A stretch of 64,000 bases of DNA, taken from assembly GCA_029834535.1 (NCBI GenBank), contig JAQMWT010000133.1, forward strand, positions 1 through 64,000. Reading direction: 5' to 3'. The first letter of the stretch is position 1, and the number at the start of each line of letters is the position of its first letter. Positions 23,575-55,132 of this stretch are shown in pieces. Position numbers and translations under genes: made by a program. Origin of the DNA: Chrysophaeum taylorii (taxonomy: Eukaryota > Sar > Pelagophyceae > Pelagomonadales > Pelagomonadaceae). Below the pieces are notes generated by a model. The model was not told where the DNA came from, did not search any database, and saw nothing but the letters and a program-made list of their open reading frames with translations.

Positions 23575-26500
23575 ATGACGTCGAGCAAGCCGCAATGGTG
23601 GTCCCCCTGGAGCGCCGAAGCGAGTTGGCAGGCTCAGGCACGCAAAACGGCAGCTGCTCTTGACAAGGAAGCGTTCCTGACGTGGCTCGACGGTGCTGGT
23701 GTCGAAGCTGCCAACCTATCTTACGGCGAGGTCTGGATCCGCTCGGCTTTCGTGGCGAACTGGCTTCTCGGGGATATCGGCCTCGCGCTGGGGGATCGCG
23801 CCATGCTCGTGTACGCTCCCGGCCCCGAGTTCTTCGTCGCCTTCGTCGCGTGTCTTCGCGCTGGCGTTTTGGCCGTACCGAATTATCCTCCAGACCCGGC
23901 CCAGCTTCAACGAGGCCTCGAGAAGCTGGACCTCGTAACCACAAACTGCGGTGCCGAGGTGGGTCTTACCGACAGTATTGTGAATAAGCTGCGCGTGACG
24001 ACGAGCATATGGCACTCGTGGCCCGGGATACGCTGGTACAACACGGAGGGCCTTGGGGAGAGTGACAACGATGACGACCCGAGTAGAGCACTGTTCCATC
24101 GGCTGGTGAGCTCACGCGCGGAGTTTGTACGGTCGACATCGTCTCGCCACTTTGTTACGAGCGACGATGCCGCCTCGGCGTTGTTGGGTGACGCCCGGCG
24201 ATCAGAGGACGCCAGACCGCCAGTCGCCACCGTCTCCCTCAGCCACAGCCTCGACACAGGGTCGAGTGAATCACTACAGGAGCAGAGCACCAGTATTCTC
24301 GAGCAGTCTCCCCCCGATGACGTTGCCTTCCTCCAATTCACGTCCGGCTCGACAGGGTGCGTTTGTCACAGGGGCCGAAATTTCCTGATTGCCTTCCACA
24401 GGGACCCCAAGGGCGTCATGATTTCACACGGCAACATCTGGCATAATCTCAACGATATTTTCTTGCCCGCGCAGCGCCGATGTTTCGACCTTCGTTTGGG
24501 TGAGGCCAGCAGTAGCCGTTTGTGCAATCTGCACGAACCGTCGGTGCGCGTCCTGGCGGTCTCGTGGCTACCGCAGTTCCATGACACGGGTTTGATGCTG
24601 ACGTTGCTCGGTCCGTTCTGCGCAGGCTACCACATGGTCAACTTCTCGCCTCTCTCGTTCCTCGCCGACCCCCTCATGTGGATGCGCGCCGTGTCGAAGT
24701 ACCGCGCGCTGTGGACCGCGGCACCAGATTTCGGCTACCAGCTGTGTACAAAGCGCGCCGCCGGCGCGTATATCAGCGACATCGACCTGAGTTGTGTGGT
24801 CATTCTGGCTTGTGGCGCTGGCCAGCGATGCGTGCCTTCGATCCTCCGCGAGTTCGCCGCGTACTTCGCCATTCACTGCAAGTTGCAGGACGACGGCAAT
24901 CGCAGCTTATTCGTGCCGAACTATGGTCTGGCTGAGCACGTAGTCGCGACGTGCGCCGAGGCCGAGGGCATCATAACATCCCGGCGGCGGCCAGACCTCG
25001 CCTCGTGTGGCTCCGAATTCCAGATTGACCTCCGCATCGTCGATGCGGAGACGCGATGCGTCGCTCCAGACGGTACGCCCGGCGAGCTGTGGTTGAGCTC
25101 TGGATCGGTCGCCCTGGGCTACTGGGGCAAACCGGACCTCAGCTCCGAGACCTTTCACGCCCGACTCGAGCCGGACGATGGCAAGGTATACCTGAGGACG
25201 GGCGACGAGGCGTTCATCGAGGACGGCCGCCTCTTCATTTGCGGCCGAATCAAAGACATGATCATCATCGGCGGCGAAAATTATTACAGCGACGACGTCG
25301 AAATTGCTGCGACGGAGGCCATGGTCGACGCCGTGAGATCGGGATGTATTGCCGCCTTTTCGGTCGTCGGCTCTGACGACGACGACGAGTGGTTGTGTAT
25401 CGTGCTTGAAGTCCGGGATCACGCTGCATCCGAGTGCGATGTTCTCGCATCGACGCTCACAAAATGCGTTCGCAAAGCGGTTGGTCTGGCACCGCGCCGT
25501 GTCGTGTTCATCAAGCAGAAGACCATTCTAAAAACGACGAGCGGGAAGCTACGGCGCCGGGCGATTCGAGACGCGCTGTTAGCTGGCGAGCTAAGCGTCG
25601 TCTTTGATTCGAACCCAACACTCGGCGGCAAGCGACAGACACTATCCAGCGGGGCTGATTGCGGGCCCAACGTTTCCCGGAGCAACTCAGCAGATGATGG
25701 CGCCAATTTTTCCCAGTGGCTATGGCGGCTCGTCAGCTCTGTGAGTGATACGGTAGGTTACCCCCTCGATTCAACGGGCCTGGCACCACCAGAGGAGGTG
25801 GATACAGAATTTACCGCAGAAGCAGATCTGACATTAAAGTGGTCCGAGTGCTTGCTCGCTGAAGCTCAGGCTCAGGGACGCTGCTACGAGCTTTCTGACT
25901 TTCTGGGCGTGTGGGAAGTGCTCGACGACCACTACGTGATTCGAAAATTCGAAATCAAGGCCGAAAACACGATCGACGACAGTCGTAACCAGAGTCACAA
26001 TCAAACACATGCTGGGATTTGCCTAAGAAAGTCTATGCAACACTGTGATGAATCACAGCGAAGATTTTTTTATTTCCACAGGTAAAAACCTCTACTGCCA
26101 GCACCATCTGGGCTGTGGGCGTTGCGCGCACGAAGGTGCTGTGGTTGCAAAGATAGTCATATCGAAGGACGACATCGAGACGCGACCCTATGTTCAAGAG
26201 GACATAATGGCACAACTGCCGCACAAGGTCTATGTGCTTGTCCTCCATCAAAATGGCGTCGTCAAGTTCGTCCCTCACGCCTCGAGCTCGCGTCTCCTTC
26301 TCGCGGCGCTTGATAGCTGCGACAGCCTCGATAAGGAGATGAATCTTGCGCATTCGACAGAGTCGTGGAAGAGGCGATGCGTTGTGTTGTGTGAGCGCGC
26401 ATTTTTAACGTGACTTTTTGAGTCTAGGCACGCTGATAAATTTGGGTGCTTCTGCTTTGGCATCGTTGTTGGCAAGAGCCGAGATCGCAGAATGATTCGC

Positions 26501-29500
26501 TGCAATCGATGGGCAACGGACAACCGCTATTTCTGGTCCGCTATCAACGTCACAACTGACTTTCATCCAGACGAAGTCGGTGAGCATCTCGTTGCGCCTG
26601 GCCTCGCGGCGCACTTCGGTGTCGACGGCGCGACTCCTTCCGGCGCGCTCCGCGACGCTATTGTTGCGATCGTTGGTGAAGGCTCTGGCCAGGAAGCCAT
26701 CGCTTCAAGAGCAGCAAGTGCGGTCGCCAAACCAGCTGTCGATGATTTATTGTTTGCGTGGCAATCCGACAGCACCGAGGGCTTGCACTCTCTCGGCTTG
26801 GCTCTCGTCGACCGCGTAGCGGACGAGATCGTTGGACTCTTTCCGCCACACACCTCGCTTAAAGACCATCCAGATATGCCAAGCATACTGCGGCAGCTTG
26901 ACGTTCCGGAGGAGCTGATGCATCGTCTCGAATACGACGAGTCTGTTGTCTATGTCCCAGCTTTCGTCGATGCGGTCAAGTCAGACCTCATCAAGATGCC
27001 CGTGGTCCTGCACGTCGCGCAAGATCTCGAGATCAAAAAGCCCGGCCGCGGTCTCCCCATTTCAGATGAGCGCGCTGCCGCCGACCTGCGCCATGCGGTT
27101 GTATATTGTTTCGCTCTTCACACGCTCGCGATCTCGATGATGCGGCCGTCTGCGCCACCAGGAAACTCGGACTTCTTGCTCGACTTTTTGAAGGCCCAAG
27201 AAGCTGCCATAAATCGCGCGAATGATACCATGGTAGTGAATACATCTTCACCTTTCGAGTATGACCCTCATGTGTTCCAGTTGACTCTACGCAAATCAAA
27301 CGCAGGCTCATGAAACACGAGGCGGTTCTATCGGCTATGCGGAACATAGCCGAGACGAGACGCGATTCGAGTCAACTCGCCACCGCGCGCATAGCTGGGG
27401 GGCTGCTTGCGGACAATATCATAATGGCAGCCATCGAGGACGTATCGAAAATTTTCGACCGCAATGCACGCGCTACGCCAGTGTCCGTGTTCTCAATTGC
27501 GGTTGTGCAAGGCAAAATGCATACGCGTGCTGAGCACGGTCGTCTCAGGCGCTGGTTTCGAGCTCGCTTACTGGAGCTGCGTGCTTCAACAACCAACCGC
27601 ATGTGTAGAAAATTTTACGAAGACAATGTATTCAGGTGTCGCAGAGTTAGTGCGCTTTGAAACGTGCCCAGCTATGATGTCGGAATGGGTCCAAGTGTAT
27701 ATCGTGTGGAATCTTACGTTTGGGTTAGCAGAGCCGCGCCCTTTCCTGCCTCACGTCGCGAAGCTTTTGGTACCATGCTTGCTATCGTTGACGAACGAAG
27801 ACCCAGCTTTGTTTCCATGGATGCGTCTCGTGACATTAAATATGCACGCCACTTCTTTGGCGTGTCATCCCGAGCTTAGGCAGATATCAGCGACGACGTA
27901 TGACTGGCGTTCGACAGAGACTAGCAATGCTTTGGGCGCGCTCAGCGAACGTCTTGCGTGCCAATCAGAGTTCGAACTTTCTCGTGGTTCTTGTCATCTG
28001 ACGTGTTAAACATTATATGTTGAGTTTGTATCGCTTTCGTGTGAAATTTCGACCTCAGGTGCCAACTCTCAAATGCAATCTCGGCGAAGATCGCCAAAAA
28101 CAGCCGATCTCGGTGCAACGTGAAAAGCGATGCACAGCTCGCAACGTTGTTTTTAAAGACGCGGCACGAGATCCTCGAGAGGTATCAGATGTTGCATGGT
28201 GCGGCGCTTAACAATCAAAGTGGTGCTCTCGGCATCGGATGGCTCGACAAGATTCGGTCGCGCGTGATGAGACGAGGCGAGGCGCCCGAAGAAGAACCTA
28301 ATGGAAGTGGGAACTCGATCCGTTGTTGCGGGAATGGGCTCTCTGAAAAGCAAGATGTCGTCGAAATAGTAGACGTTTGTGACAAGTCCGAGATGGCAGA
28401 GCGGACAGATTCTCGGGAGATGAAGGTGCGACGAGAACAGCTTGCGTACGTACGAGCGACTCTCCTTCACATTCTCGCGTCGATGGCAGAGAGCGACATC
28501 GACGCGCAGACAACGTCCGTCGCACATCTTGGCCTGTCTTCCCAAGACGCTCTGGTGGTACAGACAAATCTGCGGCGAGAGTTGTCTGTGGAAGTGCATT
28601 TCGATACGTTTATGGATCCAAATATTTCAATCGCAGAATTGGCCGATAAGATTCTGTGTATAGCGCGTGGCGAAGATGAGCACCAGATCGAGCCTCTTGC
28701 CGCACTCCCCAATGATTTCGTTCTCGAATCTACTTTGAGGTTGCCGCAATGGGCGTGTGACATGATTCAGGCATTGTCGGTGGTCGTCGTCATCGTCTTG
28801 GTCTCGATCGCGCTCGTTCCGTCGTATCACTGGGGGCACTGGGTACAGTGGCGAAAGAAGTCGATAGGCTCAAGTCGCATCGACGTGAGGCGCGACGACG
28901 CCCCGTGGTCACACATCAAAGTAGAGGGCACGAGCAAGGTCTTCGTCTATGGTCTAGGAATTCCACTCGTGATTCCGACATTCATGATATCACTCTCGCT
29001 GGTTGCAGTCAGAGTCCAACAGTCTTCGATCATAATTTAGTCCACGCCAAGAACGCAGAGGCTGTATGCTGCGTGTGTGTGTGTGTGACTCGTGTGAATA
29101 ATCCTCGCTCGTAGGTTGTCATATGTGCCAAGTGGATATTGGTTGGTCGTCGTCGGCCGACCGCCGTGGTTGTCGGATCCTTGGATTATTTGCGCTGGTG
29201 GGTCGTTGAACGGCTCTTCGATCAGTGGGAGTTATGGTGCGGCGAGTTCATCAAGGACACGATTCTCATGAACGGCTTCTACCGTGCCTGTGGTTGCAAC
29301 GTTTCGATTTTTGGTGGTGCACGGATCGACACCTTCTTGCGAGATGTCGACCTGGTCGAAGTCGGTCCCGGAGCTTCGATTGAGGGAAACGTCTACGCAC
29401 GCACTTTTTTTCGCGAGGGCCGGGATTTAGGCCTGCGTTTTGCGCCCGTGACTATTCGGGGCACTGTCGAAAAATCTGCGGTCGTGCAGCTAGGGGTCGA

Positions 29501-31140
29501 AATTGATGACGGAGCCATCCTGAAGCATCTGAGCGTCGCGCCGCCCTTTTCTCGCCTGGAAGGGGGAGCCAAGACTACTATGACGCACATGTCTCTGCCC
29601 TCGTGTTGGATCGAGCTCGCCAAGCTCGCTTCGCTCGTGCCGCTGCTGTACGCGCCGTTCGTGACGACGTCTGCCGTTGTCGCTTGGACAATGCGGCGCG
29701 TCGGGTGGTTTGCCCTAACTTTCCGTTACCGCCCTCTCCTTTGGTGGGTAATCTCGTACTACAGCGGGCTTCTCGTATTGGTTCTTTTCTCTATCATATG
29801 CAAGTGGCTGCTGATCGGTCGCGCGCACTCCGGTTCTCCTCGTTCGGTCGTGAGAGCGTGGTTTGTGGACTATGTTTGGCACCGAATCGTAGTGCGGCTC
29901 TCTGGGCTGTTGTTTCAAGGCAATGGTATCGCGACAAATCTCCTCCTGCGGGCGCTTGGTGTTGACATGGCTTGGTCAGGCAGATTTGTCTCGGCTGATG
30001 CGGTTTCGGCTTCGGAAGCAGACGTGATTACCGTCGAGGCTGACGCGCAAATATCGCAGTGTGTTGTTTCATGTGTCACGGCCGCCACCTCTTACGCTCC
30101 GGTACGCATCGGACGCGACGCCGAGGTAGGACTCGACGCTTACATTGAGGCCGGCACCGAGATAGGAGATGGTTCCGTGGTCGCGCAGCAGACGCTGGTT
30201 TCGTGCAGCTTGGCAGCAGGGTCGGTGAAATTGGGCTCGGCCACATTTCGGCATGCAGGTGGCGCTCAAAAGCGAAAGATCGTTGATCCAACTGGGGTCG
30301 ATCGCCTCGCCGTCATCATCGCCCCCTTCGTATCTCGGGCCCTCTTGCTCGCGCTCGTGGGGTTCGTCGCCCTCATCCCCAGCTACGAACTAGCCGTTCG
30401 AGTATTGTTTGGTTCGGCGACCTTCTACGATGACGACGAGTACCTGAGGGGTGTGAAACGTGATGGTTCGCGCTGGACGCCGCCCGTCGACCGGAACATT
30501 GGTATCCTCTGCATTGGCCCCATCGCCCTGGTCGCCTTCGCGTGCATGTCATTCGTTTTCCGGTTTTGGGTGTATCTTATCCTTGGCAACTTCCGCAACC
30601 TTGACGGGACTTCGCGGTGGGTGTTCGAAAAATTCCACGAGTACCAGTTCATGATAATCTATGCCTCGCACAAATTTATCATGCCTCTCGTACGCGGTAG
30701 TCGTTTGGCGATTCTCTACATGCGTTTCTGGTGAGATACGTTCACCTTGATTGCTTTCGTGCGTACGGCGACCAATCGGCCTGTTCCTGTTGCGTAGGGG
30801 CGCCAACGTCGACGCGTCGGCATTCGTCAACAATCAGGTCTTCTACGAGCCACCGCTTCTCTCTCTCGAATCGGGCTGTGTTGTCGATGAATGCGTGCGG
30901 CATCTTGGCCACGTCTTCATACATAACATCAGTGTTTTTTGAAACAAATAAATCTTGTGCTGCAAGTTGTACTGACTTCTTGCGCAGGTATTCATGGGAG
31001 GGGGCCTAGTTTTCGCGCCGAATCGCATCTGCTCTGGCGCCATCCTGCACCCGAACGTCATCACCTGGGCCGGCGACGTGGTACCCTCCGACGTGGTGTT
31101 GGGCCCGCTTACACGTGTGACAACGATTCGAAGGTGCTGA
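23575..31140 (+). CDS. Pls-like FAAL-carrier-beta-helix synthetase, array copy 1
   Basis: Predicted multidomain membrane synthetase. The adenylation domain (23575 to about 25570) has FLQFTSGSTG|DPKGVMISHG once a 45-nt intron (24357-24401) is removed, then WLPQFHDTGL, GRIKDMIIIGGENYYSDDVE and the A10-type lysine in TTSGKLRRR, which is typical of fatty-acyl-AMP ligases. Next is an unrecognised module (about 26082-28150) with CQHHLGCGRC. A carrier with LGLSSQDAL (phosphopantetheine Ser) lies near 28440-28680. Transmembrane helices and hexapeptide beta-helix segments, including KWILVGR and RWWVVERL, follow to the stop at 31138-31140, as in the C-terminal part of Pls/PosA proteins. Other clear introns are 25985-26081, 26389-26427, 27958-28058, 29008-29114, 30731-30797 and 30913-30987. 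Two junctions near 27.26-27.31 and 27.48-27.56 kb could not be closed, so a lesion there is possible. The substrate is unknown. Confidence 0.75.
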
Positions 31141-35131: not shown

Positions 35132-38100
35132 ATGACGTCGAGCAAGCCGCAATGGTGGTCCCCCTGGAGCGCCGAAGCGAGTTGGCAGGCTCAGGCACGC
35201 AAAACGGCAGCTGCACTTGACACGGAAGCTTTCCTGACGTGGCTCGACGGTGCTGGTGTCGAAGCTGCCAACCTATCTTACGGCGAGGTCTGGAGCCGCT
35301 CGGCTTTCGTGGCGAACTGGCTTCTTGGGGATATCGGCCTCGCGCTGGGGGATCGCGCCATGCTCGTGTACGCTCCCGGCCCCGAGTTCTTCGTCGCCTT
35401 CGTCGCGTGTCTTCGCGCTGGCGTTTTGGCCGTACCGAATTATCCTCCAGACCCGGCCCAGCTTCAACGAGGCCTCGAGAAGCTGGACCTCGTAACCACA
35501 AACTGCGGTGCCGAGGTGGGTCTTACCGACAGTATTGTGAATAAGCTGCGCGTGACGACGAGCATATGGCACTCGTGGCCCGGGATACGCTGGTACAACA
35601 CGGAGGGCCTGGGGGAGAGTGACAACGATGACGACCCGAGTAGAGCACTCTTCCATCGGCTGGTGAGCTCACGCGCGGAGTTTGTACGGTCGACATCGTC
35701 TCGCCACTTTGTTTCGAGTGACGATGCAGCCTCGGCGTCGTGGGGCGACGCCCGACGATCGGAGGACGCCACACCGGCAGTCGCCACAGTCTCCCTCAGC
35801 CTCAGCCTCAACACAGGGTCGAGTGAATCACTACTTCATGACGACCAGCACGAAGTCGCATATCTATCACGCGCGCACGGTGACCAGGAAGAAGGGAACA
35901 GTCTCCTCGAGCAATTCCCCCCCGACGACATTGCCTTCCTCCAATTCACGTCCGGCTCTACAGGGTGCGTTTGTCACAAGGCCAAAAGCTTCCTGATGGT
36001 CTTTCTTTCTTTTTTTCTTTCTTTCGCAGGGATCCCAAGGGCGTCATGATTTCACACGGCAACATCTGGCACAATCTTAACGAAATATTCTTGCCTGCTC
36101 AACGCCGAGCCCTCGACGTGCGCTTAGGTGAGGCCAAGAGCAACCGTTTGCACGATCTCCAGGACCACTCGGAACGTATCGTTGCGGTCAGCTGGCTCCC
36201 GCAGTTCCATGACCTGGGCTTGGTGGCCATGCTGCTCGGGCCGTGGTGCGCAGGCTACCACATGGTCAGCTTGTCGCCTCTCTCGTTCCTCGCTGACCCC
36301 CTCATGTGGATGCGCGCCATGTCCAAGTACCGTGCACAGTGGACCGCGGCGCCAGACTTTGCCTACCAGTTATGTACGAAGCGCGCCGCCAATGCCGATG
36401 TCAGCGACATCGACCTTGGCTGTGTGGTTTACTTGGTTGGCGGGTCGGGCCAGCGGTGCGTGCCTTCGACCTTGCGGGAATTCGCGGCGTACTTTGCCAT
36501 TCATTGCAACCTCCCTGACGACGGCGGCCGCGGTATCTTTGTACCGAATTACGGCCTGGCAGAGCATGTAGCTCCGACGTGCGGCGAGGCCGAGGGCATC
36601 ATAACGTCCCGGCGGCGGCCAGACCTCGCCTCGTGCGGCTCCGAATTCCAGATTGACCTCCGCATCGTCGATGAGGAGACGCGGTGCGTCGCTCCAGACG
36701 GTACGCCCGGCGAGCTGTGGTTGAGCTCTGGCTCGGTCGCCCTGGGCTACTGGGGCAAACCGGAACTCAGCTCCGAGACCTTTCACGCCCGACTCGAGCC
36801 GGACGATGGCAAGGTATACCTGAGGACGGGCGACGAGGCGTTCATCGAGGACGGCCGCCTCTTCATTTGCGGCCGAATCAAAGACATGATCATCATCGGC
36901 GGCGAAAATTATTACAGCGACGACGTCGAAATTGCTGCGACGGAGGCCATGGTCGACGCCGTGAGATCGGGATGTATTGCCGCCTTTTCGGTCGTCGGCT
37001 CTGACGACGACGACGAGTGGTTGTGTATCGTGCTCGAAGTCCGCGATCACGCTGCATCCGAGTGCGATGTTCTCGCATCGACGCTCACAAAATGCGTTCG
37101 CAAAGCGGTTGGTCTGGCACCGCGCCGTGTCGTGTTCATCAAGCAGAAGACCATTCTAAAAACGACGAGCGGGAAGCTACGGCGCCGGGCGATTCGAGAC
37201 GCGCTGTTAGCTGGCGAGCTAAGCGTCGTCTTTGATTCAAACCCAACACTCGGCGGCAAGCGACAGACACTATCCAGCGGGGCTGATTGCGGGCCCAACG
37301 TTTCCCGGAGCAACTCAGCAGATGATGGCGCCAATTTTTCCCAGTGGCTATGGCGGCTCGTCAGCTCTGTGAGTGATACGGTGGGTTACCCCCTCGATTC
37401 ATCAGGCCTGGCACCACCAGAGGAGGTGGATAGAGAATTTACCGCAGAAGCAGATCCGACATTGAAGTGGTCCGAGTGCTTGGTCGCGGAAGCTCAGGCT
37501 CAGGGACGCTGCTACGAGCTTTCCGACTTTCTGGGCGTGTGGGAAGTGCTCGACGACCACTATGTGATTCGAAAATTCGAAATCAAGGCCGAAAACACGA
37601 TCGACGACAGTCGTAACCAGAGTCACGATCAAACACATGCTGGGATTTGCCTAAGAAAGTCTATGCAACACTGTGATGAATCACAGCGATGATTTTTTAA
37701 TTCCACAGGTAAAAACCTCTACTGCCAGCACCATCTGGGCTGCGGGCGTTGCGCGCACGAAGGTGCTTTGGTCGCAAAGATAGTCATATCGAAGGACGAC
37801 ATCGAGACGCGACCCTATGTTCAAGAGGACATATTGGCGCAACTGCCGCACAAGATATATGTGCTTGTCCTCCATCAAAATGGCGTCATCAAGTTCGTCC
37901 CTCACGCCTCGAGCTCGCGACTCCTCATCGCGGCGCTTGATAGCTGCGACAACCTCGATAAGGAGATGAATCTCGCGTATGTGGCAGTGTCTCGGAAAAA
38001 AAAGCTATGCGTTGTTTTGTGTGCGTGCGCATTTTTAACGTGACTTTTTGAATCTAGGCACGCTGATAAATTTGGGTGCTTCTGTTTTGGCATCGTCGTC

Positions 38101-41100
38101 GGCGAGGGCCGAGATCGCAGATTGATTCGCTGCAATCGATGGGCAACGGACAACCGCTATTTCTGGTCCGCTGTCAACGTCACAACCGACTTTCATCCAG
38201 ACGAAGTCGGTGAGCATCTCATTGCGCCTGGCCTCGAAGCGCACTTCGGTGTTGACGGCGCGACTCCTTCGGGGGCGCTTCGTGACGCTATTGTTGCGAT
38301 CGCTGGCGAAGGCTCTGGTCAGGAAGCCATTGCTTCACGAGCAGCGGGTGCGGTCGCCAAACCAGCTGTCGATGATCTATTGTTTGTGTGGCAATCCGAG
38401 AGCAGCGAGGACGTGCACTCTCTCGGCTTGGCTCTCGTCGACCGCGTAGCGGAGCAGATCGTTGGGCTCTTCCCGCCAGACACCTCGCTTAAAGACCATC
38501 CAGATATGCTAAGCATACTGCGGCAGCTTGACGTTCCGGAGGAGCTGATGCATCGTCTCGAGTACGACGAGTCTGTTGTCTATGTCGCAGCTTTCGTCGA
38601 GGCGGTCAAGTCAAACCTCATCAAGATGCCCGTGCTCCTGCACGTCGCGCAAGATCTCGAGATCAAAAAGCCCGGCCGCGGTCTCCCCATTTCAGATGAG
38701 CGCGCTGCCGCCGACCTGCGCCATGCGGTTGTTTATTGTTTCGCTCTTCACACGCTCGCGATCTCGATGATGCGGCCGTCTGCGCCATCAGGAAACTCGG
38801 ACTTCTTGCTCGACTTTTTGAAGGCCCAAGAAGCTGCCATAAATCTCGTGAACAACGCGGTGGACATAAACACGTCTTCGCCCTTCGAGTATGACGCGCA
38901 TGTATTTCATGTGATTCGATGCAAATCAAATGTAGGCTCATGAAGCACGAGGCGGTTCTATCGGCTATGCGGAACATAGCCGAGACGAGACGCGACCCGA
39001 GTCAAATCGCCAATGCTCGCGCAGCCGGCGAGCTGCTCGCGGACAATATCGTGATGGCAGCCGTTGAGGACGTCTCTAAGGCATTTGACCGCAACGCTCG
39101 CAAGTCGACAGAGCCCATGGTTTATTCATTTCGTCAAACGCAAGACGCGCTTTTGTGCCTGTGAGTGTATGACAACCCCCATCTTAGGCGCTGGGTTTGA
39201 ACTTGCCTACTGGAGCTGTGTGCTCTACCAACCAACTGCACGCGTGGAAGTTTCCGCAAGTCCGCTGTATTCGGGCCTCACACAGTTGGTACGTTTCGAA
39301 GTGTGCCCAGCTATGATGTCGGAATGGATCCAAACTTATATACTCTGGAATCTTACGTTTGGATTAGCAGAGCCGCGCCCTTTTCTACCTCACGTCGCTA
39401 AGCTCCTGGTGCCATGCTTGCTTTCGTTGACGAACGAAGACCCGGCGTTGTTTTTGTGGATGCGTATCGTGACACTGCACACGCACGCCACTTCTCTTGC
39501 TTGTCACCCCGAGCTTAGGCAGATATCAGCGACGACGTATGACTGGCGTTCGACAGAGACCACAGCTGCCTTGGGCGAGCTGAGCGAGGCGCTCGCATGT
39601 CAACTGTCAAATTTAATTGTGGCAAAGCTGGCCAATAGTCGTCAATCTCAAGGCGACGCGCAGCTTGCAACATTGTTTTCCAAGATGTGGCACCAAGTCC
39701 TCGAGAGATATCAAATGTTGCATAGAGCAGCGTGGAATGACCGGAGTGGTTCTCTCGGCCACGGGTGGCTTCACAAGATTAGATCGCGTGTGGCGGAATC
39801 TTTCGACGATAAGGCACGCGAAGTACATTCTGTTGATGGTTCTGCCCATTCGGCCAGCGGACTCTCTGAAGAGATCAACCCCATCGACATATCCGTGGCT
39901 TGGGTGCCTGAGGTGGTCGCGTCGACGGACGCACTTGAGACCGCCGTGCGCCGCGAACAGCGCGCGTATGTCCAAGACACTCTCCTTCGCCTTCTCGCGT
40001 CCATAGCAGAGACGGACGTTGACGCGCAGACAACATCCCTCGCACAGCTCGGCTTATCGTCGCAAGACGCACTGGTAGTGCAGACACAGTTGAAGCAAGA
40101 GCTGACTGTAGACGTACATTTCAACATACTCATGGATCCAAATTTTTCGATTGCGGAATTGGCTGACAATATTCTATGTATCTCGCGACGGGAAGATGAG
40201 CAGCCGCACGCACCGCTAGTGCCACTCCCCGATAATGTTAATCTCGAATCTCCTTTGAGGTTGCCGCAATGGGCGTGTGACATGATTCAGGCATTGTCGG
40301 TGGTCGTCGTCATCGTCTTGGTCTCGATCGCGCTCGTTCCGTCGTATCACTGTGGGCACTGGGTACAGTGGCGAAAGAAGTCGATAGGCTCAAGTCGCAT
40401 CGACGTGAGGCGCGACGACGCCCCGTGGTCACACATCAAAGTAGAGGGCACGAGCAAGGTCTTCGTCTATGGTCTAGGAATTCCACTCGTGATTCCGACA
40501 TTCATGATATCACTCTCGCTGGTTGCAGTCAGAGTCCAACAGTCTTCGATCATAATTTAGTCCACGCCAAGAACGCAGAGGCTGTATGCTGCGTGTGTGT
40601 GTGTGTGACTCGTGTGAATAATCCTCGCTCGTAGGTTGTCATATGTGCCAAGTGGATATTGGTTGGTCGTCGTCGGCCGACCGCCGTGGTTGTCGGATCC
40701 TTGGATTATTTGCGCTGGTGGGTCGTTGAACGGCTCTTCGATCAGTGGGAGTTATGGTGCGGCGAGTTCATCAAGGACACGATTCTCATGAACGGCTTCT
40801 ACCGTGCCTGTGGTTGCAACGTTTCGATTTTTGGTGGTGCACGGATCGACACCTTCTTGCGAGATGTCGACCTGGTCGAAGTCGGTCCCGGAGCTTCGAT
40901 TGAGGGAAACGTCTACGCACGCACTTTTTTTCGCGAGGGCCGGGATTTAGGCCTGCGTTTTGCGCCCGTGACTATTCGGGGCACTGTCGAAAAATCTGCG
41001 GTCGTGCAGCTAGGGGTCGAAATTGATGACGGAGCCATCCTGAAGCATCTGAGCGTCGCGCCGCCCTTTTCTCGTCTGGAAGGGGGAGCCAAGACTACTA

Positions 41101-42653
41101 TGACGCACATGTCTCTGCCCTCGTGTTGGATCGAGCTCGCCAAGCTCGCTTCGCTCGTGCCGCTGCTGTACGCGCCGTTCGTGACGACATCTGCCGTTGT
41201 CGCTTGGACAATGCGGCGCGTCGGGTGGTTTGCCCTAACTTTCCGTTACCGCCCTCTCCTTTGGTGGGTAATCTCGTACTACAGCGGGCTTCTCGTATTG
41301 GTTCTTTTCTCTATCATATGCAAGTGGCTGCTGATCGGTCGCGCGCACACCGGTTCTCCTCGTTCGGTCGTGAGAGCGTGGTTTGTGGACTATGTTTGGC
41401 ACCGAATCGTAGTGCGGCTCTCTGGGCTGTTGTTTCAAGGCAATGGTATCGCGACAAATCTCCTCCTGCGGGCGCTTGGTGTTGACATGGCTTGGTCAGG
41501 CAGATTTGTCTCGGCTGATGCGGTTTCGGCTTCGGAAGCAGACGTGATCACCGTCGAGGCTAATGCACAATTATCGCTCTGCGTTGTTTCTTGTGTCACG
41601 GCCACCTCCTCTTACGCTCCGGTACGCATCGGACGCGACGCCGAGGTAGGACTCGACGCTTACATTGAGGCCGGCACCGAGATAGGAGATGGTTCCGTGG
41701 TCGCGCAGCAGACGCTGGTTTCGTGCAGCTTGGCAGCAGGGTCGGTGAAATTGGGCTCGGCCACATTTCGGCATGCAGGTGGCGCTCAAAAGCGAAAGAT
41801 CGTTGATCCAACCGGGGTCGATCGCCTCGCCGTCATCATCGCCCCCTTCGTATCTCGGGCCCTCTTGCTCGCGCTCGTGGGGTTCGTCGCCCTCATCCCC
41901 AGCTACGAACTAGCCGTTCGAGTATTGTTTGGTTCGGCGACCTTCTACGATGACGACGAGTACCTGAGGGGTGTGAAACGTGATGGTTCGCGCTGGACGC
42001 CGCCCGTCGACCGAAACATTGGTATCCTCTGCATTGGCCCCATCGCTCTGGTCGCCTTCGCGTGCATGTCATTCGTTTTCCGGTTTTGGGTGTATCTTAT
42101 CCTTGGCAACTTCCGCAACCTTGACGGGACTTCGCGGTGGGTGTTCGAAAAATTCCACGAGTACCAGTTCATGATAATCTATGCCTCGCATAAATTTATC
42201 ATGCCTCTCGTACGCGGTAGTCGTTTGGCGATTCTCTACATGCGTTTCTGGTGAGATACGTTCACCTTGATTGCTTTCGTGCGTACGGCGACCAATCGGC
42301 CTGTTGCTGCTGTGTAGGGGCGCCGACATCGACGCGTCGGCATTCGTCAACAGCCAGCTATTCTACGAGCCACCGCTTCTCTCTCTCGAAGCGGACTGTG
42401 TTGTCGATGAATGCGTGCGGCATCTTGGCCACGTCTTTATACATAACATCAGTGTTTTTGAAACAAATAAATCTTGTGCTGCCACTTGTACTGACTTCTT
42501 GCGCAGGTATTCATGGGAGGGCGCCTAGTTTTCGCACCGAATCGCATCTGCTCTGGCGCCATCCTGCACCCGCACGTCATCACCTGGGCTGGCGACGTGG
42601 TACCCTCCGACGTGGTGTTGGGCCCGCGTACACGTGTGGCAAAGTCCGCGTGA
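35132..42653 (+). CDS. Pls-like FAAL-carrier-beta-helix synthetase, array copy 2
   Basis: Same domain order as copy 1. The adenylation domain is split by a 65-nt intron (35965-36029) inside the core SGSTG|DPKGV motif; WLPQFHDLGL, GRIKDMIIIGGENYYSDDVE and TTSGKLRRR follow. The unrecognised module with CQHHLGCGRC begins at 37709. The carrier LGLSSQDAL lies near 40030-40060, and membrane plus beta-helix segments run to the stop at 42651-42653. Further introns are 37613-37708, 38019-38057, 40528-40634, 42251-42317 and 42433-42506. Copy 2 lacks the intron that copy 1 has at 27958-28058. From 40261 to 42250 it is almost identical to copy 1, while 38830-40260 is clearly diverged. Junctions near 38.89-38.94 and 39.12-39.18 kb are not fully resolved; at the second, a GT-AG intron closes in frame. 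No internal lesion is evident elsewhere. Confidence 0.8.
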
Positions 42654-44267: not shown

Positions 44268-44289
44268 AGGGGATAACCGTGGGATTCCC
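44268..44289. promoter_or_regulatory. Shared upstream motif GAGGGGATAACCGTGGGATTC
   Basis: The same core occurs upstream of copy 2 (34986-35008, GGGGATAACGGTCGGATTC) and, inverted and twice, upstream of copy 1 (23201-23217 and 23306-23324). It lies roughly 85-370 bp before each start codon. It could be a promoter element or the end of a mobile sequence. Confidence 0.35.
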
Positions 44290-44374
44290 AAAAAGTAGCC
44301 CTCTTCCTCATCTCCATTTGAGGTGCACGCGTCGAACTTGACACCGCCCGCGCGCCGCAGAGGAGGACACCGCT

Positions 44375-47300
44375 ATGACGTCGAGCAAGCCGCAATGGTG
44401 GTCCCCCTGGAGCGCCGAAGCGAGTTGGCAGGCTCAGGCACGCAAAACGGCAGCTGCTCTTGACAAGGAAGCGTTCCTGACGTGGCTCGACGGTGCTGGT
44501 GTCGAAGCTGCCAACCTATCTTACGGCGAGGTCTGGAGCCGCTCGGCTTTCGTGGCGAACTGGCTTCTCGGGGATATCGGCCTCGCGCTGGGGGATCGCG
44601 CCATGCTCGTGTACGCTCCCGGCCCCGAGTTCTTCGTCGCCTTCGTCGCGTGTCTTCGCGCAGGCGTTTTGGCCGTACCGAATTATCCTCCAGACCCGGC
44701 CCAGCTTCAACGAGGCCTCGAGAAGCTGGACCTCGTAACCACAAACTGCGGTGCCGAGGTTGGTCTTACCGACAGTATTGTGAATAAGCTGCGCGTGACG
44801 ACGAGCGTATGGCACTCGTGGCCCTGGATACGCTGGCACAACACGGAGGGCCGGGGAGAGGGTGACAACGATGACGACCCGAGTAGAGCACTCTTCCATC
44901 GGCTGGTGAGCTCACGCGCGGAGTTTGTACGGTGACGCCCGACGATCAGAGGACGCCAGACGACCGCCAGTCGCCACCGTCTCCCTCAGCCACAGCCTCG
45001 ACAGGGTCGAGTGAATCACTACAGGACCAAAGCACCAGTCTTCTCGACGAGTCTCCCCCCGATGACATTACCTTCCTCCAATTCACGTCCGGCTCGACAG
45101 GGTGCGTTTGTCACAGGGCCCGAAAATTTCCTGATTGCCTTCCACAGGGACCCCAAGGGCGTCATGATTTCACACGGCAACATCTGGCATAATCTCAACG
45201 ATATTTTCTTGCCCGCGCAGCGCCGATGTTTCGACCTTCGTTTGGGTGAGGCCAGCAGTAGCCGTTTGTGCAATCTGCACGAACCGTCGGTGCGCGTCCT
45301 GGCGGTCTCGTGGCTACCGCAGTTCCATGACACGGGTTTGATGCTGACGTTGCTCGGTCCGTTCTGCGCAGGCTACCACATGGTCAACTTCTCGCCTCTC
45401 TCGTTCCTCGCCGACCCCCTCATGTGGATGCGCGCCGTGTCGAAGTACCGCGCGCTGTGGACCGCGGCACCAGATTTCGGCTACCAGCTGTGTACAAAGC
45501 GCGCCCCCGGCGCGTATATCAGCGACATCAACCTGAGTTGTGTGGTCATTCTGGCTTGTGGCGCTGGCCAGCGATGCGTGCCTTCGATCCTCCGCGAGTT
45601 CGCCGCGTACTTCGCCATTCACTGCAAGTTGCAGGACGACGGCAATCGCAGCTTATTCGTGCCGAACTATGGTCTGGCTGAGCACGTAGTCGCGACGTGC
45701 GCCGAGGCCGAGGGCATCATAACATCCCGGCGGCGGCCAGACCTCGCCTCGTGTGGCTCCGAATTCCAGATTGACCTCCGCATCGTCGATGCGGAGACGC
45801 GATGCGTCGCTCCAGACGGTACGCCCGGCGAGCTGTGGTTGAGCTCTGGCTCGGTCGCCCTGGGCTACTGGGGCAAACCAGAACTCAGCTCCGAGATCTT
45901 CAGCGCCCGACTCGAGCCGGACGATGGCAAGGTATACCTGAGGACGGGCGACGAGGCGTTCATCGAGCACGGCCGCCTTTTTCATTTGCGGCCGAATCAA
46001 AGACATGATCATCATCGGCGGCGAAAATTATTACAGCGACGACGTCGAAATTGCTGCGACGGAGGCTATGGTCGACGCCGTGAGACCGGGATGTATTGCC
46101 GCCTTTTCGGTCGTCGGCTCTGATTACGACGACGAGTGGTTGTGTATCGTGCTTGAAGTCCGGGATCACGCTGCATCCGAGTGCGATGTTCTCGCATCGA
46201 CGCTCACAAAATGCGTTCGCAAAGCGGTTGGTCTGGCACCGCGCCGTGTCGTGTTCATCAAGCAGAAGACCATTCTAAAAACGACGAGAGGGAAGCTACG
46301 GCGCCGGGCGATTCGAGACGCGCTGTTAGCTGGCGAGCTAAGCGTCGTTTTTGATTCGAACCCAACACTCGGCGGCAAGCGACAGACACTATCCAGCGGG
46401 GCTGATTGCGGGCCCAACGTTTCCCGGAGCAACTCAGCAGATGATGGCGCCAATTTTTCCCAGTGGCCATGGCGGCTCGTCAGCTCTGTGAGTGATACGG
46501 TGGGTCACCCCCTCGATTTGACGGGCCTGGCATCACCGGAGGAGCTGGAAAGAGAATTTACCGCACAAACAGATCCAACATTAAAGTGGTCCGTCCGAGT
46601 GCTTGCTCGCGGAAGCTCAGGCTCAGGGACGCTGCTACGAGCTTTCTGACTTTCTGGGCGTGTGGGAAGTGCTCGACGACCACTACGTGATTCGAAAATT
46701 CGAAATCAAGGCCGAAAACACGATCGACGACAGTCGTTACCAGATTCACAATCAAACACATGCTGGGATTTGCCTAAGAAAGTCTATGCAACACTGTGAT
46801 GAATCACAGCGAAGATTTTTTTTTTTTCCACAGGTAAAAACCTCTACTGCCAGCACCATCTGGGCTGTGGGCGTTGCGCGCACGAAGGTGCTTTGGTCGC
46901 AAAGATAGTCATATCGAAGGACGACATCGAGACGCGACCCTATGTTCAAGAGGACATAATGGCACAACTGCCGCACAAGGTCTATGTGCTTGTCCTCCAT
47001 CAAAATGGCGTCGTCAAGTTCGTCCCTCACGCCTCGAGCTCGCGTCTCCTTCTCGCGGCGCTTGATAGCTGCGACAGCCTCGATAAGGAGATGAATCTTG
47101 CGCATTCGACAGAGTCGTGGAAGAGGCGATGCGTTGTGTTGTGTGAGCGCGCATTTTTAACGTGACTTTTTGAATCTAGGCACGCTGATAAATTTGGGTG
47201 CTTCTGCTTTGGCATCGTTGTTGGCAAGGGCCGAGATCGCAGAATGATTCGCTGCAATCGATGGGCGACGGATAACCGCTATTTCTGGTCCGCTATCAAC

Positions 47301-50300
47301 GTCACATGATCGCCGACTGCGGTTGCGATGGAGGACGGTGCCTCATGAATCCTGAGCCTTGCGAGGGCATCCGCCCTCCCGGCGTAGGTTGGCACCTATT
47401 CGCCTCCCGGGCGGGCCGGTTGGCAGCCGGAACGTTCGCAGTGGGACGGGGTATGGCCGGGGGGCGAAGACGGAAGGTTATCGACGAGTTGGTTGTCAGT
47501 CACATCGCGGTCTCCTCGTCGCATGGCGACAAGCTTGATGGTCACTCTCCGCCGACCGACCTTTCGGCGCTCCTCGTGTACAGGCCCGTGATTCCGGACT
47601 GGCTCCTGTCGGTCCGGCCTGGCTCCCATGCTCGGGAGAGGTCTGAAGTTAGTTAGTTAGTTAGTTATCAACGTCACAACTGACTTTCATCCAGACGAAG
47701 TCGGTGAGCATCTAATCGCGCCTGGCCTCGCGGCGCACTTCGGTGTCGACGGCGCGACTCCTTCGGGCGCACTCCGCGACACTATTGTTGCGCTTGAGGG
47801 CGAAGGCTCTGGCCAGGAAGCCATAGCTTCACGAGCAGCGAGTGCGGTCGCCATACCAGCTGTGGATGATCTGTTGTTTGCGTGGCAATCCGACAGCACC
47901 GAGGGCTTGCACTCTCTCGGCTTGGCTCTGATCGACCGTGCAGCGGAGCAGATCGTTGGACTCTTCCCGCCAGACACCTCGCTCAAAGACCACCCAGATA
48001 TGCCAAGCATACTGCGGCAGCTTGACGTTCCGGAGGAGCTGATGCATCGTCTCGAGTACGACGAGTCTGTTGTCTATGTCGCAGCTTTCGTCGAGGCGGT
48101 CAAGTCAAACCTCATCAAGATGCCCGTGCTCCTGCACGTCGCACAAGATCTCGAGATCAAAAAGCCCGGCCGCGGTCTCCCCATTTCAGATGAGCGCGCT
48201 GCCGCCGACCTGCGCCATGCGGTTGTTTATTGTTTCGCTCTTCACACGCTCGCGATCTCGATGATGCGGCCGTCTGCACCATAAGGAAACTCGGACTTCT
48301 TGCTCGACTTTTTGAAGGCCCAAGAAGCTGCCATAAATCTCGCAAACTACGCGGTGGACATAGACAAGTCTTCGCCCTTCGAGTATGACCCTCATGTATT
48401 TAAATCGAGTAAACGCAAATAAAACGCAGGCTCGTGAAACACGAGGCGGTTCTATCGGCTATGCGGAACATAGCCGAGACGAGACGTGATTCGAGTCAAC
48501 TCGCCACCGCGCGCATATCTGGGGGGCTGCGCGGACAATATCATAATGGCAGCCATTGAGGACGTATCGAAAAATTTCGACCGCAATGCACGCGCTACGC
48601 CAGAGTCCATTCTCAATTGCAGTTGTTCAAGGCAAAATTCATATGCATGCTGAGCACGGTCATCACAGGCGCTGGTTTCGAACTTGCTTACTGGAGCTGC
48701 GTGCTTCAACAACCAACCGCACGTGTAGACGTCTTCACGGAGACAATGTATTCAGGTGTCGCAGAGTTCGTATGTTTTGAGACGTCCCCAGCTATGATGT
48801 CGGAATGGGTCCAAGTGTATATCGTGTGGAATCTTACATTCGGGTTAGCAGAGCCGCGCCCTTTTCTACCTCACGCTGCTAAGCTCCTGGTGCCATGCTT
48901 GCTATCGTTGACGAACGAAGACCCGGCGTTATTTTTGTGGATACGTATCGTGACGCTGCACACGCACGCCACTTCTTTGGCATGTCACCCCGAGCTTAGC
49001 CAGATATCAGCGACGACGTATGACTGGCGTTCGACAGAGACCACCTCTGCCTTGGGCGCCGCGCTGAGCGAACGTCTTGCGTAACAACCAGAGTTCGAGC
49101 TTTCTCGTGGTTCTCGTCCGTTCACGTGTTAAGCATTACATTTATCCGCGTTTGGAGGAGTTGTCTCGCTTTCGCGAGAAAATTCGAGACCCCAGGTGCC
49201 AACTCTCAAATGCAATCTCAGCGAAGATCGCCAACAACAGCCGAACTCAGCGCAAAGTCGAAAGCGATGCACAGCTTGCAACGTTGTTTTTAAAGACGCG
49301 GCTTGAGATCCTTGAGAGATACAAGTTGTTGCACGTTGCGGCATTAAACAATCAAAGTGGAGCCCTCGGCGACGGATGGCTCGAGAAGATTCGATCGCGC
49401 GTGACGAGACTGGACAAGGAGGCCGGAGACGAACACGCAGGCGGCGAAACCTCGACCCATTGCGGAAGCGGGCGCTCTAGAAAGCAAGGCATCGTCGTCC
49501 GAATATTAGACCGTTGTGGTCGAGTTCGAGATGGCAGCGCCGATAGACTCTCTGGAGATGAATGTGCGACAAGAACAGCTAGCGTATGTACAAGCTACTC
49601 TTCTTCACATTCTTGCATCGATGGCAGAGACCGATATCGACGCTAATAGAGCATCCGTCGCACAACTTGGCCTTTCTTCCCAAGACGCGCTGGTGGTGCA
49701 GACACAGTTGCGGCGGGTTTTGTCCGTTGAAGTGCACTTCAACACACTTATGAATCCGAATCTTGCGATTGCTGAGTTGGCTAACGAGATTCTTCGTACT
49801 GCGCGCGAGGAAATTGAGCCGCGGCTCGCAGCGCTCGTGCCAATCCCCGACGGCATTGAACTTGGGTCCACAACAAGACTGCCGCAATGGGTCGTCGACA
49901 TGGTTCAGGCGCTCTCGGTGATCGTCGTTGTAATCTTGGTGTCGATCGCGCTCGTTCCATCGTATCACTTTGGGCGCAGGGTGCAGTGGCGTACCAAGTC
50001 GCTAGGTATGAACATCAAAGCGCATCGAGGTTCGGCGTGACAATGCACCGTGGTCACACATCAAGATTGCCGGGACGGACCGCGTCTATACTTATGGTCT
50101 CTTACTACCGTTGGTTATCCCGCTCTTCATGGTGTCGCTTGCAGTGATCACCATTCTTGCAAAGTGGCTTGTGATCGGTCGCTACCGTGTCGGAGCAACA
50201 TACCGAGGCACGCCGTAATTTTTTGTGTTGGTGGCTCGTCGATAGGCTTCTCGACCAATTCGACTTTTGGGTTGGCGCATTCAACCACGACACGCTGTTC

Positions 50301-52359
50301 GTTAACGTGTTCTGTTTAGTAATGGGCGTGCACATCTCGGTTCGTGCGTCTGTCGAAGTTATGTTCCGATAGTTCGACCTGATCTCAGTTGGGGAGCACG
50401 CACGAGTAAGCGGCCTTTGTTACGCCCGTATGTTTGAACCCGATGGCCGTATGCGCTTCGCGCGCGTTGTCATCGAACCACACTCAATGGTCCAATCAGG
50501 TAGTGTTGTGATGCCAGGCTGCAAACTAGAGGACGGTGCTGTGCTAGACAACGGCGCCGCAACAACGAGCGGCCAACTTCTGGCCCGTGAGAGCCTGTAT
50601 CAATCGAGCCCGGCGCAATTGGCGGGCGTTGTGAACATCGCGCACGTCGTCGTCGACACGTCGCCGCCGATCAATTTGTTCTGTTTCGAGATCGCGAAAC
50701 GTGCGACGCTCGCGTGCTTCCTCTACGGATCGCTGGTCGGGTCGAATGTGCTCTAGAGTATCTTTTGCGGCAGCTCGATTGGTACTCGTGGCGATTTCGA
50801 TATCGCGAGCTTATTTACTTCGTATCGGGTTATTTCTTGGCGATGTTTATCTCGGCAGGTGTTGGCGTTGTGGTGTTCAAGTTGTTGCTTATCGGCCGTT
50901 TACGTCTAGGGGTACACAAGTGCGAAGATTGGACGTGGCGTCTGCGGACATGGTTCGTTGAGTGGATTTGGTATCACTTGTCTTGTTGAAATTCGGGGCT
51001 TTGGTGTGGGAAGAAAATGGCTTGTTGAGTTGACGTTGATGAAGGCTTTGGGCGTGCGCGTTCACTCTACGGCAAAAAACATGGCAAGCGTCTTTTTCTT
51101 TTCACCTGTCGAAGCGGACTTGATCGAGGTCGCAACAGCAGTGTTCTTGCTTCATCTCCCAATGATACTTTTGTTGTGAATAGCGCAATGAGCACCCTCT
51201 GATATCACTGACTATTCGCCACCTCTCAGGTCAGCGAGTTTGCAACTCTGTCCGTGTTTGTAGTTTCTAGCTAAGGATTCACAGGAGAGTATAAACCGAT
51301 CAGGATCGGGGTGGGGGCACAAGTTGGTCTTCGCTCACGACTCAACGCCGGCGTGGTCCTCGAAGACGGCGCAGTCGTGGGACATCAAACGGTGGTACCG
51401 GAGAACTTCGTCGTCCAGACGGGGTCGACGTACTTTGCGTCCAGCGTCTTCTCGCGCACGACTGTGCCTGTGGACGGTGAACAGAAAAATAAAAAGGTAC
51501 GACACGGCATTGTTGCGCTCATTCCTGCGTGCGAATGCGCCGTTTGGCTACTCTACAAGAGAGCAAATTACTTCAAATCTGACTACTACAACAACGGATT
51601 CCGTGTCCGCGACTCCGGGCGAATCCGAGTATGGCAGCCCCCGGTGGCGCGCACTCCCGCGCTCGTGCTCGTCGGACCCATCGCCCTCGTTGCTTACGCG
51701 TCAATGGCAGTAGCCTTCCGTGCATGGCAGTGGCTGATAATGCGCGACTGGAAAAGCGCAAGCGACACCGTGTGGTCGCCTTGGCAAAACTTGGCATACA
51801 TGGATTACCAGATGATCTTCTTCAGCCTTTGTGGACAAATCATGCCACTGATCCGCGGTAGTCGACTCGCCATTGCATACATGCGTTTGTTTGGCGCAAG
51901 GGTTGAATCTACCGCCTTTGTGAATAGCTACTACCTCTTTGAACCACCGTTGCTCACGATCGGTACTGACGCCGTCTTAGACGAATTCTCGGCGAATTAT
52001 GCTCACGTAGTGAGGCGGTGTCCTAGACGCATGCTTGGGTGTGCTAGAAAGAAGTCGTGTACGAATAGGTTGACGCAGAAACGCAGTCGTCTGACATATT
52101 GGTTTGTGCTCAGGTCTTCGAGCACGGGCACCTCACTTTCCAGAGAAAGATAATTGGCAGAGGCGCGATTTTGCATCCGGGATCCATTACTTGGGCTGGC
52201 GACGTCGTCCCTGCTGGCGTCGTATTAGGCCCCAAAGCACAGCTTGAAACCCGTGACACTTTGATCTACCCACCTGGATCGTACCTCCAAGGCTGTCCGG
52301 CCCGAGACTACGCGACACTGCTCTACAGTTCTCGTGCAAAGCACACGCAGCTTCTATGA
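44375..52359 (+). pseudogene. Pls-like synthetase, array copy 3 (decayed)
   Basis: Homologous over the full domain order to copies 1 and 2, but broken. Relative to copy 1 it has a 56-bp deletion at about 44934 that shifts the frame, a one-base gain near 45977 in the GRLF motif, a TAA in place of a Ser codon near 48282, a SINE-like insertion at 47307-47665, and several further frame breaks between 50.0 and 51.3 kb. The adenylation intron is 45102-45147. The carrier is near 49660-49690. In the 3' half it lacks the introns that copies 1 and 2 have at 29008/40528 and 30731/42251. Its last exon (52114-52359) keeps a longer C-terminus ending in YPPGSYLQGCPARDY, the usual end of hexapeptide transferases, which copies 1 and 2 have lost. 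Confidence 0.85.
47307..47665 (+). mobile_element. SINE-like retroposon, copy B, with 13-bp target-site duplication
   Basis: This 359-bp insert interrupts copy 3. The 13-bp target TATCAACGTCACA is present at 47294-47306 and 47666-47678 and only once in copy 1. The insert ends in GAAGTTAGTTAGTTAGTTAG, a (TTAG)n tail. Apart from about 15-20 bp missing at its 5' end, it is nearly identical to copy A at 20502-20878, so both insertions are fairly recent. Confidence 0.95.
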
Positions 52360-55045: not shown

Positions 55046-55132
55046 TCGTGTGATCTTAGACCTGAGAAATCTTCTTCTTTATTATTACCACAAAGTAGTT
55101 CGAGAGAAATTCGAGTACGCAAGCTCCCCAGA

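What the first reader, a model, noticed from the sequence alone, without database searches (positions are those of the whole stretch)
23575..52359. Tandem array of Pls-like FAAL-carrier-membrane beta-helix synthetases in a eukaryote
Three head-to-tail genes, each about 7.5-8 kb, combine an FAAL-type adenylation domain, an unknown module, a GLSS carrier and a membrane hexapeptide beta-helix region. The last two parts resemble the C-terminal part of bacterial Pls/PosA NRPS-like proteins (epsilon-poly-lysine synthetase family). Introns show these are true nuclear genes. Established knowledge: Pls enzymes make amide-linked homopolymers without a thioesterase. Inference: this array makes an acylated or polymeric metabolite, possibly membrane-bound.
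Basis: partly seen in the sequence, partly recalled or inferred. Interest (0 to 1): 0.9.

Follow-up and report, generated by a model that had tools for sequence, protein, structure and literature searches.

The report
Algal membrane-bound fatty-acyl synthetase family
A mucilage-forming marine alga carries about thirty large genes that join a fatty-acid-activating enzyme, a carrier and a membrane-embedded transferase related to bacterial poly-lysine synthetases; the three in this window form a tandem array whose members swap parts, and their product is unknown.

Summary
The array is real. Gene 1 (23575-31140, 10 exons, 2,291 aa) and gene 2 (35132-42653, 9 exons, 2,300 aa) are intact; gene 3 (44375-52359) is broken and chimeric; a relic follows. 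Order: FAAL-type adenylation domain, ~670-residue module without a known family, carrier, C-terminal domain with six hydrophobic segments and hexapeptide-like repeats. The C-terminal domain is homologous to that of Pls/PosA but scores far below that family's cut-off, and the adenylation domain is fatty-acyl type; 28 of 28 bacterial or bacterial-looking relatives typed have the amino-acid type. The genome holds about 32 such loci; of 23 modelled, 15 carry the module. Pairs tested show purifying selection, and terminal domains have been exchanged between paralogs, including tandem neighbours. Best reading: a fatty acid is adenylated, loaded on the in-cis carrier and passed by the membrane domain (His in 25, Glu in 24 of 25 sequences) to an unknown acceptor. 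Polymerisation is neither shown nor excluded. New variant of a known kind.

The parts
23575..31140 (+). Gene 1 (intact): exons 23575-24356, 24402-25984, 26082-26349, 26428-27258, 27306-27469, 27549-27957, 28059-29013, 29115-30730, 30798-30912, 30988-31140; 2,291 aa
   Evidence: Hand-set splice sites, seven GT-AG and two GC-AG introns, no internal stop; no transcript data
23575..25620 (+). FAAL-type adenylation domain of gene 1 (motifs FTSGSTG 24337, YGLAEH 24922, YLRTGD 25189, GRIKDM 25243, TTSGK 25534)
   Evidence: NCBIfam FAAL models best; PDB best 7r7g/7r7f/7r7e/3kxw; motif positions
25837..28236 (+). Unknown module of gene 1; absent from 8 of 23 modelled paralogs
   Evidence: No Pfam family above cut-off, no PDB relative better than E 1.7, homologs P0047/P0048, dN/dS
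28531..28551 (+). Carrier motif GLSSQDA, predicted phosphopantetheine serine at 28540-28542
   Evidence: Pfam PP-binding 4.1e-05; Ser in 22 of 23 paralog models, 1 gapped
28750..31140 (+). Membrane terminal domain of gene 1: six hydrophobic segments in three pairs; conserved Glu 30847-30849 and His 30910-30912
   Evidence: TIGR02353 6.7e-20 for the 29115-30731 exon; hydropathy; conservation; positions
35132..42653 (+). Gene 2 (intact): exons 35132-35964, 36030-37612, 37709-37976, 38058-38888, 38936-39099, 39188-40533, 40635-42250, 42318-42432, 42507-42653; 2,300 aa; lacks the intron at 27958-28058 of gene 1
   Evidence: terminal domain 94-100% identical in DNA to gene 1 over nearly its whole length
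44375..52359 (+). Gene 3 (broken, chimeric): 5' half close to gene 1, 3' half close to paralog L018
47307..47667 (+). 361-bp SINE-like insertion inside the module of gene 3, 13-bp target-site duplication, GTTA-repeat tail; inverted copy at 20504-20865
54259..54861 (+). Relic of a fourth copy (terminal-domain fragments)
   Evidence: 75-91% identical blocks; C133:54417-54518 and 54596-54700

Best explanation
Each intact gene encodes one membrane-bound acyl-transferring synthetase. Step 1 (inferred from family): the FAAL-type domain turns a fatty acid or similar carboxylic acid into acyl-AMP. Step 2 (inferred): the acyl group passes to phosphopantetheine on the carrier of the same chain. Step 3 (inferred): the C-terminal domain, three pairs of membrane helices with beta-helix-like regions and a conserved Glu...His pair in the third repeat, transfers the acyl group to a nucleophile held at the membrane, giving an acylated lipid, sugar or small molecule. 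The module in most copies probably sets the acceptor or regulates transfer (guess). Shown here: the domain order, conservation of the predicted catalytic residues, purifying selection in the pairs tested, and exchange of terminal domains between paralogs.
For: A domain: FAAL models 256 bits against 90.7 bits for amino-acid adenylation; the best PDB sequences include FadD23, FadD32 and FadD28. Carrier Ser in 22 of 23 C. taylorii models (1 gapped), Glu in 23 of 23, His in 21 of 23 (2 gapped); across 25 sequences including 9 bacterial-looking ones His 25, Glu 24, carrier Ser 24. Six hydrophobic segments in three pairs in WA, L014 and L020. Hexapeptide matches and weak PDB matches to acetyl-/acyltransferases (best E 0.045). 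dN/dS for the whole gene 0.18-0.39 in 9 of 9 pairs. PosA's C-terminal domain is modelled as six membrane helices with three left-handed beta-helices packed as in sugar-nucleotide acyltransferases (PMC10522769, passages).
Against: No activity, product or transcript was seen. The region after YGLAE, where I recall the FAAL-specific insertion lies, is about 22 residues shorter than in 7r7g, so CoA rejection is not assured. The hexapeptide hits are below Pfam cut-offs. The Glu is Asp in P0022 and Asn in P0020. The crude hydropathy scan counts 5 to 7 segments in other relatives: L012 7, P0006 6 (not evenly paired), P0010 7, P0012 5, P0013 6. Genes 1 and 2 end without the last segment found in gene 3 and in the L012, L014 and L020 models.
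Confidence: 0.5

Rival explanations
1. Template-free polymerisation as in Pls, but of hydroxy- or amino-acids activated by the FAAL-type domain, giving a polyester or polyamide exported at the membrane, for example into the mucilage.
For: Homology of the terminal domain to the Pls/PosA polymerising domain, including the conserved His; no thioesterase or condensation domain hit in the 10 pieces scanned.
Against: Needs a bifunctional substrate, which FAALs do not usually take (recalled); terminal domain far below the Pls/PosA cut-off; no chemistry.
Confidence: 0.18
2. A eukaryotic poly-amino-acid synthetase with Pls function, as described for fungal Epls.
For: Fungal Epls has A, T, six membrane segments and three C domains and is tied to epsilon-poly-lysine (PMC7179176, passages).
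Against: Amino-acid adenylation model 90.7 bits against cut-off 317.4, while 28 of 28 bacterial or bacterial-looking relatives typed carry the amino-acid type (7 by NCBIfam, one of them, the partial P0016, at 302.8 just under the cut-off; 21 by tblastn; overlap between the two sets not checked).
Confidence: 0.06
3. Loading enzymes for aromatic acids (cinnamate-like) on the way to chrysophaentins.
For: The genome paper proposes N-terminal adenylation domains of the alga's PKS as loaders of such starters (PMC10366177, sections 6 and 8).
Against: No ketosynthase is hit in the pieces scanned; relatives occur in environmental proteins of unnamed source, so the family is probably not tied to this one compound; substrate pocket not analysed.
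Confidence: 0.1
4. A decaying, non-functional expansion, copied by tandem duplication and gene conversion.
For: Gene 3 is broken and a fourth copy is a relic.
Against: dN/dS 0.18-0.39 in 9 of 9 pairs; genes 1 and 2 open over 2,291 and 2,300 codons; predicted catalytic residues kept.
Confidence: 0.08

Closest known systems
Pls/PosA NRPS-like poly-amino-acid synthetases (TIGR02353; Streptomyces Pls, Acinetobacter PosA, fungal Epls)
   Same: Carrier followed by a homologous ~700-residue membrane domain; conserved His and, in most, Glu; no thioesterase seen
   Different: FAAL-type instead of amino-acid adenylation domain; terminal domain 71-123 bits against a cut-off of 423; 15 of 23 modelled copies carry an extra module between A domain and carrier
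Fatty acyl-AMP ligases (FadD32, FadD28, FadD23; 3kxw and 7r7e-g, whose FAAL nature is recalled)
   Same: Adenylation domain belongs here by score and motifs; carrier in cis
   Different: Shortened region after YGLAE; fused to a membrane beta-helix-type domain instead of PKS/NRPS modules; I found no such fusion in the parts of the papers read
DIP2 (DMAP1-binding domain plus two FAAL-like domains)
   Same: A eukaryotic multidomain protein with FAAL-like domains
   Different: No carrier or membrane terminal domain is mentioned for it in the section read (PMC8460268 section 10)
P0010 (EukProt, species not given), P0022/P0020 (ncbi source, unnamed)
   Same: FAAL-type domain (P0010, P0022), carrier-like motif and Pls-like terminal domain
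   Different: No C. taylorii-type module; P0010 has another insert of about 450 residues with no detectable relation to it

Membership tests
Pls/PosA (TIGR02353 equivalog domain) | Terminal domain above the curated cut-off (423.1 bits) | tested here: not met
   71 bits for the window exon, 122.7 for P0006 and 115 for P0010 full length; 7 of 7 bacterial-looking relatives score 537-655
Pls/PosA (TIGR02353 equivalog domain) | Amino-acid adenylation domain | tested here: not met
   TIGR01733 90.7 bits, cut-off 317.4; FAAL models best
Pls/PosA (TIGR02353 equivalog domain) | Six membrane segments in three pairs | tested here: met
   Hydropathy after the carrier: six segments in WA, L014 and L020, seven (one weak) in L012; the method is crude, giving 5 and 6 in bacterial-looking P0012 and P0013
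Pls/PosA (TIGR02353 equivalog domain) | Three tandem beta-helix (C1-C3) regions | tested here: inconclusive
   Hexapeptide hits below cut-off; three matching repeats seen in several bacterial-looking relatives; structure job failed
Pls/PosA (TIGR02353 equivalog domain) | Makes an amino-acid homopolymer | not testable with these tools
   No chemistry available
FAAL | Closer to FAALs than to CoA ligases or amino-acid A domains | tested here: met
   window; P0006
FAAL | FAAL-specific insertion | tested here: inconclusive
   Region after YGLAE about 22 residues shorter than in 7r7g, nearly full length in P0010; its place is recalled
FAAL | Forms acyl-AMP and rejects CoA | not testable with these tools
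   Needs an enzyme assay
Canonical NRPS | Condensation domain | tested here: not met
   No condensation-domain hit in 10 pieces scanned against Pfam at E<=1

The most novel reading that the evidence does not exclude
A eukaryote-specific class of single-chain, membrane-embedded acyl synthetases (FAAL, carrier, triple beta-helix transferase), expanded to about thirty genes in one alga, that diversifies by exchanging terminal domains between tandem neighbours and has acquired a ~670-residue module of unknown, possibly new, fold; its products could be a family of acylated or polyester exopolymers.
Probability: 0.3. Interest if true: 0.82.

Novelty: new variant of a known kind. Interest (0 to 1): 0.62.

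Why it matters
It links two enzyme worlds seen apart in the papers read: fatty-acyl-AMP ligases, and the membrane domain that polymerises amino acids in Pls. If the terminal domain turns out to move acyl groups from a carrier across or into a membrane, that bears on the mechanism of Pls, on what bloom-forming pelagophytes secrete, and on how eukaryotes evolve large synthetases by part-swapping. The C. taylorii records recovered are deposited as hypothetical proteins or AMP-dependent synthetases, and the three that hold the module lack parts of it, so the family is easy to miss.

Tried and rejected
AlphaFold2 of the module (P0048 with 18 further rows, many of them exon fragments): mean pLDDT 35.6, so no fold search was run. 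Profile search of module exons against PDB sequences: one hit at E 1.7, taken as chance. A link between the module and the insert of P0010: hhalign score 17.9, reached by 11 of 40 shuffles (12.7-27.4), rejected. A damage-control-phosphatase (DUF89) reading of the module: only E 0.24 for one exon, dropped. Gene prediction by codon model alone put in too many small exons; rerun with homology. P0001-P0003 skip module parts and were left out of trees. L019 was dropped from the three-part trees (14 of 15 long copies used); L019, L026, P0020 and P0022 from the terminal-domain tree; the terminal-domain tree uses 11 of 23 models. dN/dS used the predictor's models, not the hand-set ones; its region labels do not apply to the short pair L014/L015. 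The constraint test on the A-domain tree failed twice for a file-name clash and ran. The three large protein searches scored only the 7,998-8,000 candidates sharing most words, within length limits.
Full report
Identity of the genome. The window is contig C133 of a 70.8-Mb assembly in 697 contigs. An RFC1-like ORF in the window and the introns fit a nuclear locus.

Gene structures. A self-BLAST shows three direct copies. With hand-set splice sites gene 1 is 23575-31140 in 10 exons with nine introns of 45-101 nt, seven GT-AG and two GC-AG, and 2,291 codons without a stop. Gene 2 is 35132-42653 in 9 exons and 2,300 codons; one intron of gene 1 is missing there. Gene 3 (44375-52359) is broken: compared with gene 1 its frame is interrupted in the adenylation half, and a 361-bp element with a 13-bp target-site duplication and a GTTA-repeat tail sits in the module; intact copies of the same gene type exist. 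An assembly error behind part of the frame damage is not excluded. A terminal-domain relic of a fourth copy lies at 54259-54861.

Domains. The first ~670 residues are a FAAL-type adenylation domain: fatty-acid--AMP ligase models reach 256 bits, amino-acid adenylation only 90.7 bits with a cut-off of 317.4. In the PDB 16 distinct sequences score at 1e-20 or better with most of the second exon; the best 14 are 7r7e-g, 3kxw, FadD23, FadD32, FadD28, 3pbk and others named acyl-CoA synthase, the last two are amino-acid adenylation proteins; that 7r7e-g and 3kxw are FAALs is recalled. The stretch after YGLAE is about 22 residues shorter than in 7r7g, so the FAAL-specific insertion may be reduced; its location there is recalled. 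FAAL landmarks reported for EcFAAL (W224, P226, M231, F279; PMC8460268, passages) seem kept except M231, which is Thr here; I mapped them by motif, not by alignment to 3pbk. The carrier is hit by Pfam PP-binding (4.1e-05). The C-terminal part matches TIGR02353 at 6.7e-20 (71 bits, one exon), but the full-length relatives P0006 and P0010 reach only 122.7 and 115 bits against 423.1. A simple hydropathy scan finds six segments in three pairs in WA, L014 and L020, seven in L012, and 5 to 7 in four other relatives; six in three pairs is the layout reported for Pls/PosA (PMC10522769, passages). In an alignment of 25 terminal domains (11 of C. taylorii, 5 other FAAL-type, 9 bacterial-looking) one His is present in 25, a Glu in 24 and the carrier Ser in 24. 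Among 23 C. taylorii models the Glu is kept in 23, the His in 21 (2 gapped) and the Ser in 22 (1 gapped); among six outside relatives the Glu is kept in 4, with Asp in P0022 and Asn in P0020.

The unknown module. About 670 residues (740-1405 of gene 1) lie between A domain and carrier. No Pfam family reaches its cut-off there; a profile search of PDB sequences gives one hit at E 1.7. Two searches of 5.8 billion proteins, each scoring about 8,000 candidates within length limits, found it only in three C. taylorii records and in two unnamed environmental proteins, P0047 and P0048, at 47-50% identity. P0047 goes on into a carrier-like stretch (Pfam PP-binding 0.0023, below cut-off) and, by sight, a terminal domain. 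AlphaFold2 gave no usable model (pLDDT 35.6). dN/dS in the module is 0.17-0.33 in 7 of the 8 long-class pairs; the eighth, L016/L017, is nearly identical there (dS 0.002) and gives 1.31.

The family. One search lists 81 matches of the terminal domain in the genome; I group them into 32 gene-like loci on 22 contigs, plus two divergent ones and a few fragments; six contigs hold copies within 15 kb of each other. I modelled 23 of the 32: 15 have the module, 8 do not. In the A-domain tree the short copies L012, L014 and L015 branch with environmental proteins (P0005, P0006, P0008) outside the main group; the short copies L023 and L026 are sister to the rest of the main group, and L021, L027 and L028 fall among long ones. 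A tree forcing all long copies together is rejected (p-AU 0.0003). So module presence does not follow the A-domain tree.

Exchange of parts. For 14 long copies the A-domain, module and terminal-domain trees reject each other (p-AU at most 6.7e-4 in all six comparisons; gene 3 models run across its breaks). Terminal domains fall into two deep types. Gene 3 has a 5' part 93-100% identical to gene 1 up to about position 27000 and a terminal domain only 40-55% identical to gene 1 but 82-90% identical to L018, 71% in the last window. Genes 1 and 2 are 94-100% identical in DNA from 28751 to about 31000 but 62-76% just before that. The tandem neighbours L023 (short) and L024 (long) are 52% identical in the A-domain part and 83% from the carrier region on, while L023 and L026 are 75% and 66%; A-domain data reject the pairing of L023 with L024 (p-AU 4e-4) and terminal-domain data require it among the three topologies tested (alternatives p-AU at most 3e-6).

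Outside relatives. A pattern scan of one genome per prokaryote species gave 21 relatives; 21 of 21 have an amino-acid A domain upstream (best 245-582 bits, against at most 79 bits for FAAL queries). In the terminal-domain tree the nine bacterial-looking sequences split off with 100% support. No FAAL-Pls fusion was therefore seen in a prokaryote, within the reach of these searches.

Literature. The genome paper (PMC10366177; abstract, passages, sections 6 and 8) reports 13 PKS and nine NRPS genes, N-terminal adenylation-like domains and beta-helix domains in PKS genes; a word search of its main text finds neither FAAL nor Pls. Fungal Epls shows that true Pls exists in eukaryotes (PMC7179176, passages). 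PMC8460268 (passages, section 10) and PMC11837247 (passages) discuss eukaryotic FAALs; the parts read mention no fusion to a Pls-type domain. Full-text searches for such combinations listed no paper whose title or abstract start describes it; two searches listed only 15 of 49 and 8 of 29 papers, and the library holds open-licence papers only.

Mechanism and limits. The best-supported reading is fatty-acyl activation, loading in cis, and membrane-domain acyl transfer to an unknown acceptor. Everything past the domain order, conservation, selection and recombination is inference. Paralog models come from a simple predictor of my own and carry local errors; terminal-domain structure could not be modelled because the job failed.

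Noticed in passing
window 47307-47667, 20504-20865 (-), L016:1249-1519: SINE-like element: 13-bp target-site duplication (at 47307), GTTA-repeat tail, 97-99% identical copies.
   Followed up: partly
window 27958-28058 against the contiguous 39188-40533: An intron of gene 1 is absent from gene 2 although the genes are close copies; GTGCCAA repeats at both splice junctions, as in introner-like gains.
   Followed up: no
window 54914-57964 (+): A 1,017-aa open frame with GH16 and GT2 hits directly downstream of the array; a polysaccharide link is possible.
   Followed up: no
window 7162-10581 (-): 1,140-aa open frame with right-handed beta-helix and Chlamydia PMP-repeat hits.
   Followed up: no
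window 26350-26427, 27470-27548 and 39100-39187: GC-AG introns in genes 1 and 2.
   Followed up: partly
P0010 residues about 610-1050: A EukProt FAAL-carrier-Pls-like protein carries a different insert of about 450 residues at the same place; no relation to the algal module detected.
   Followed up: partly
G000 C524:205520-206113 and C524:214553-215245: Two divergent (28% identity) relatives of the terminal domain in open frames of 1,352 and 1,392 aa; not fetched.
   Followed up: no
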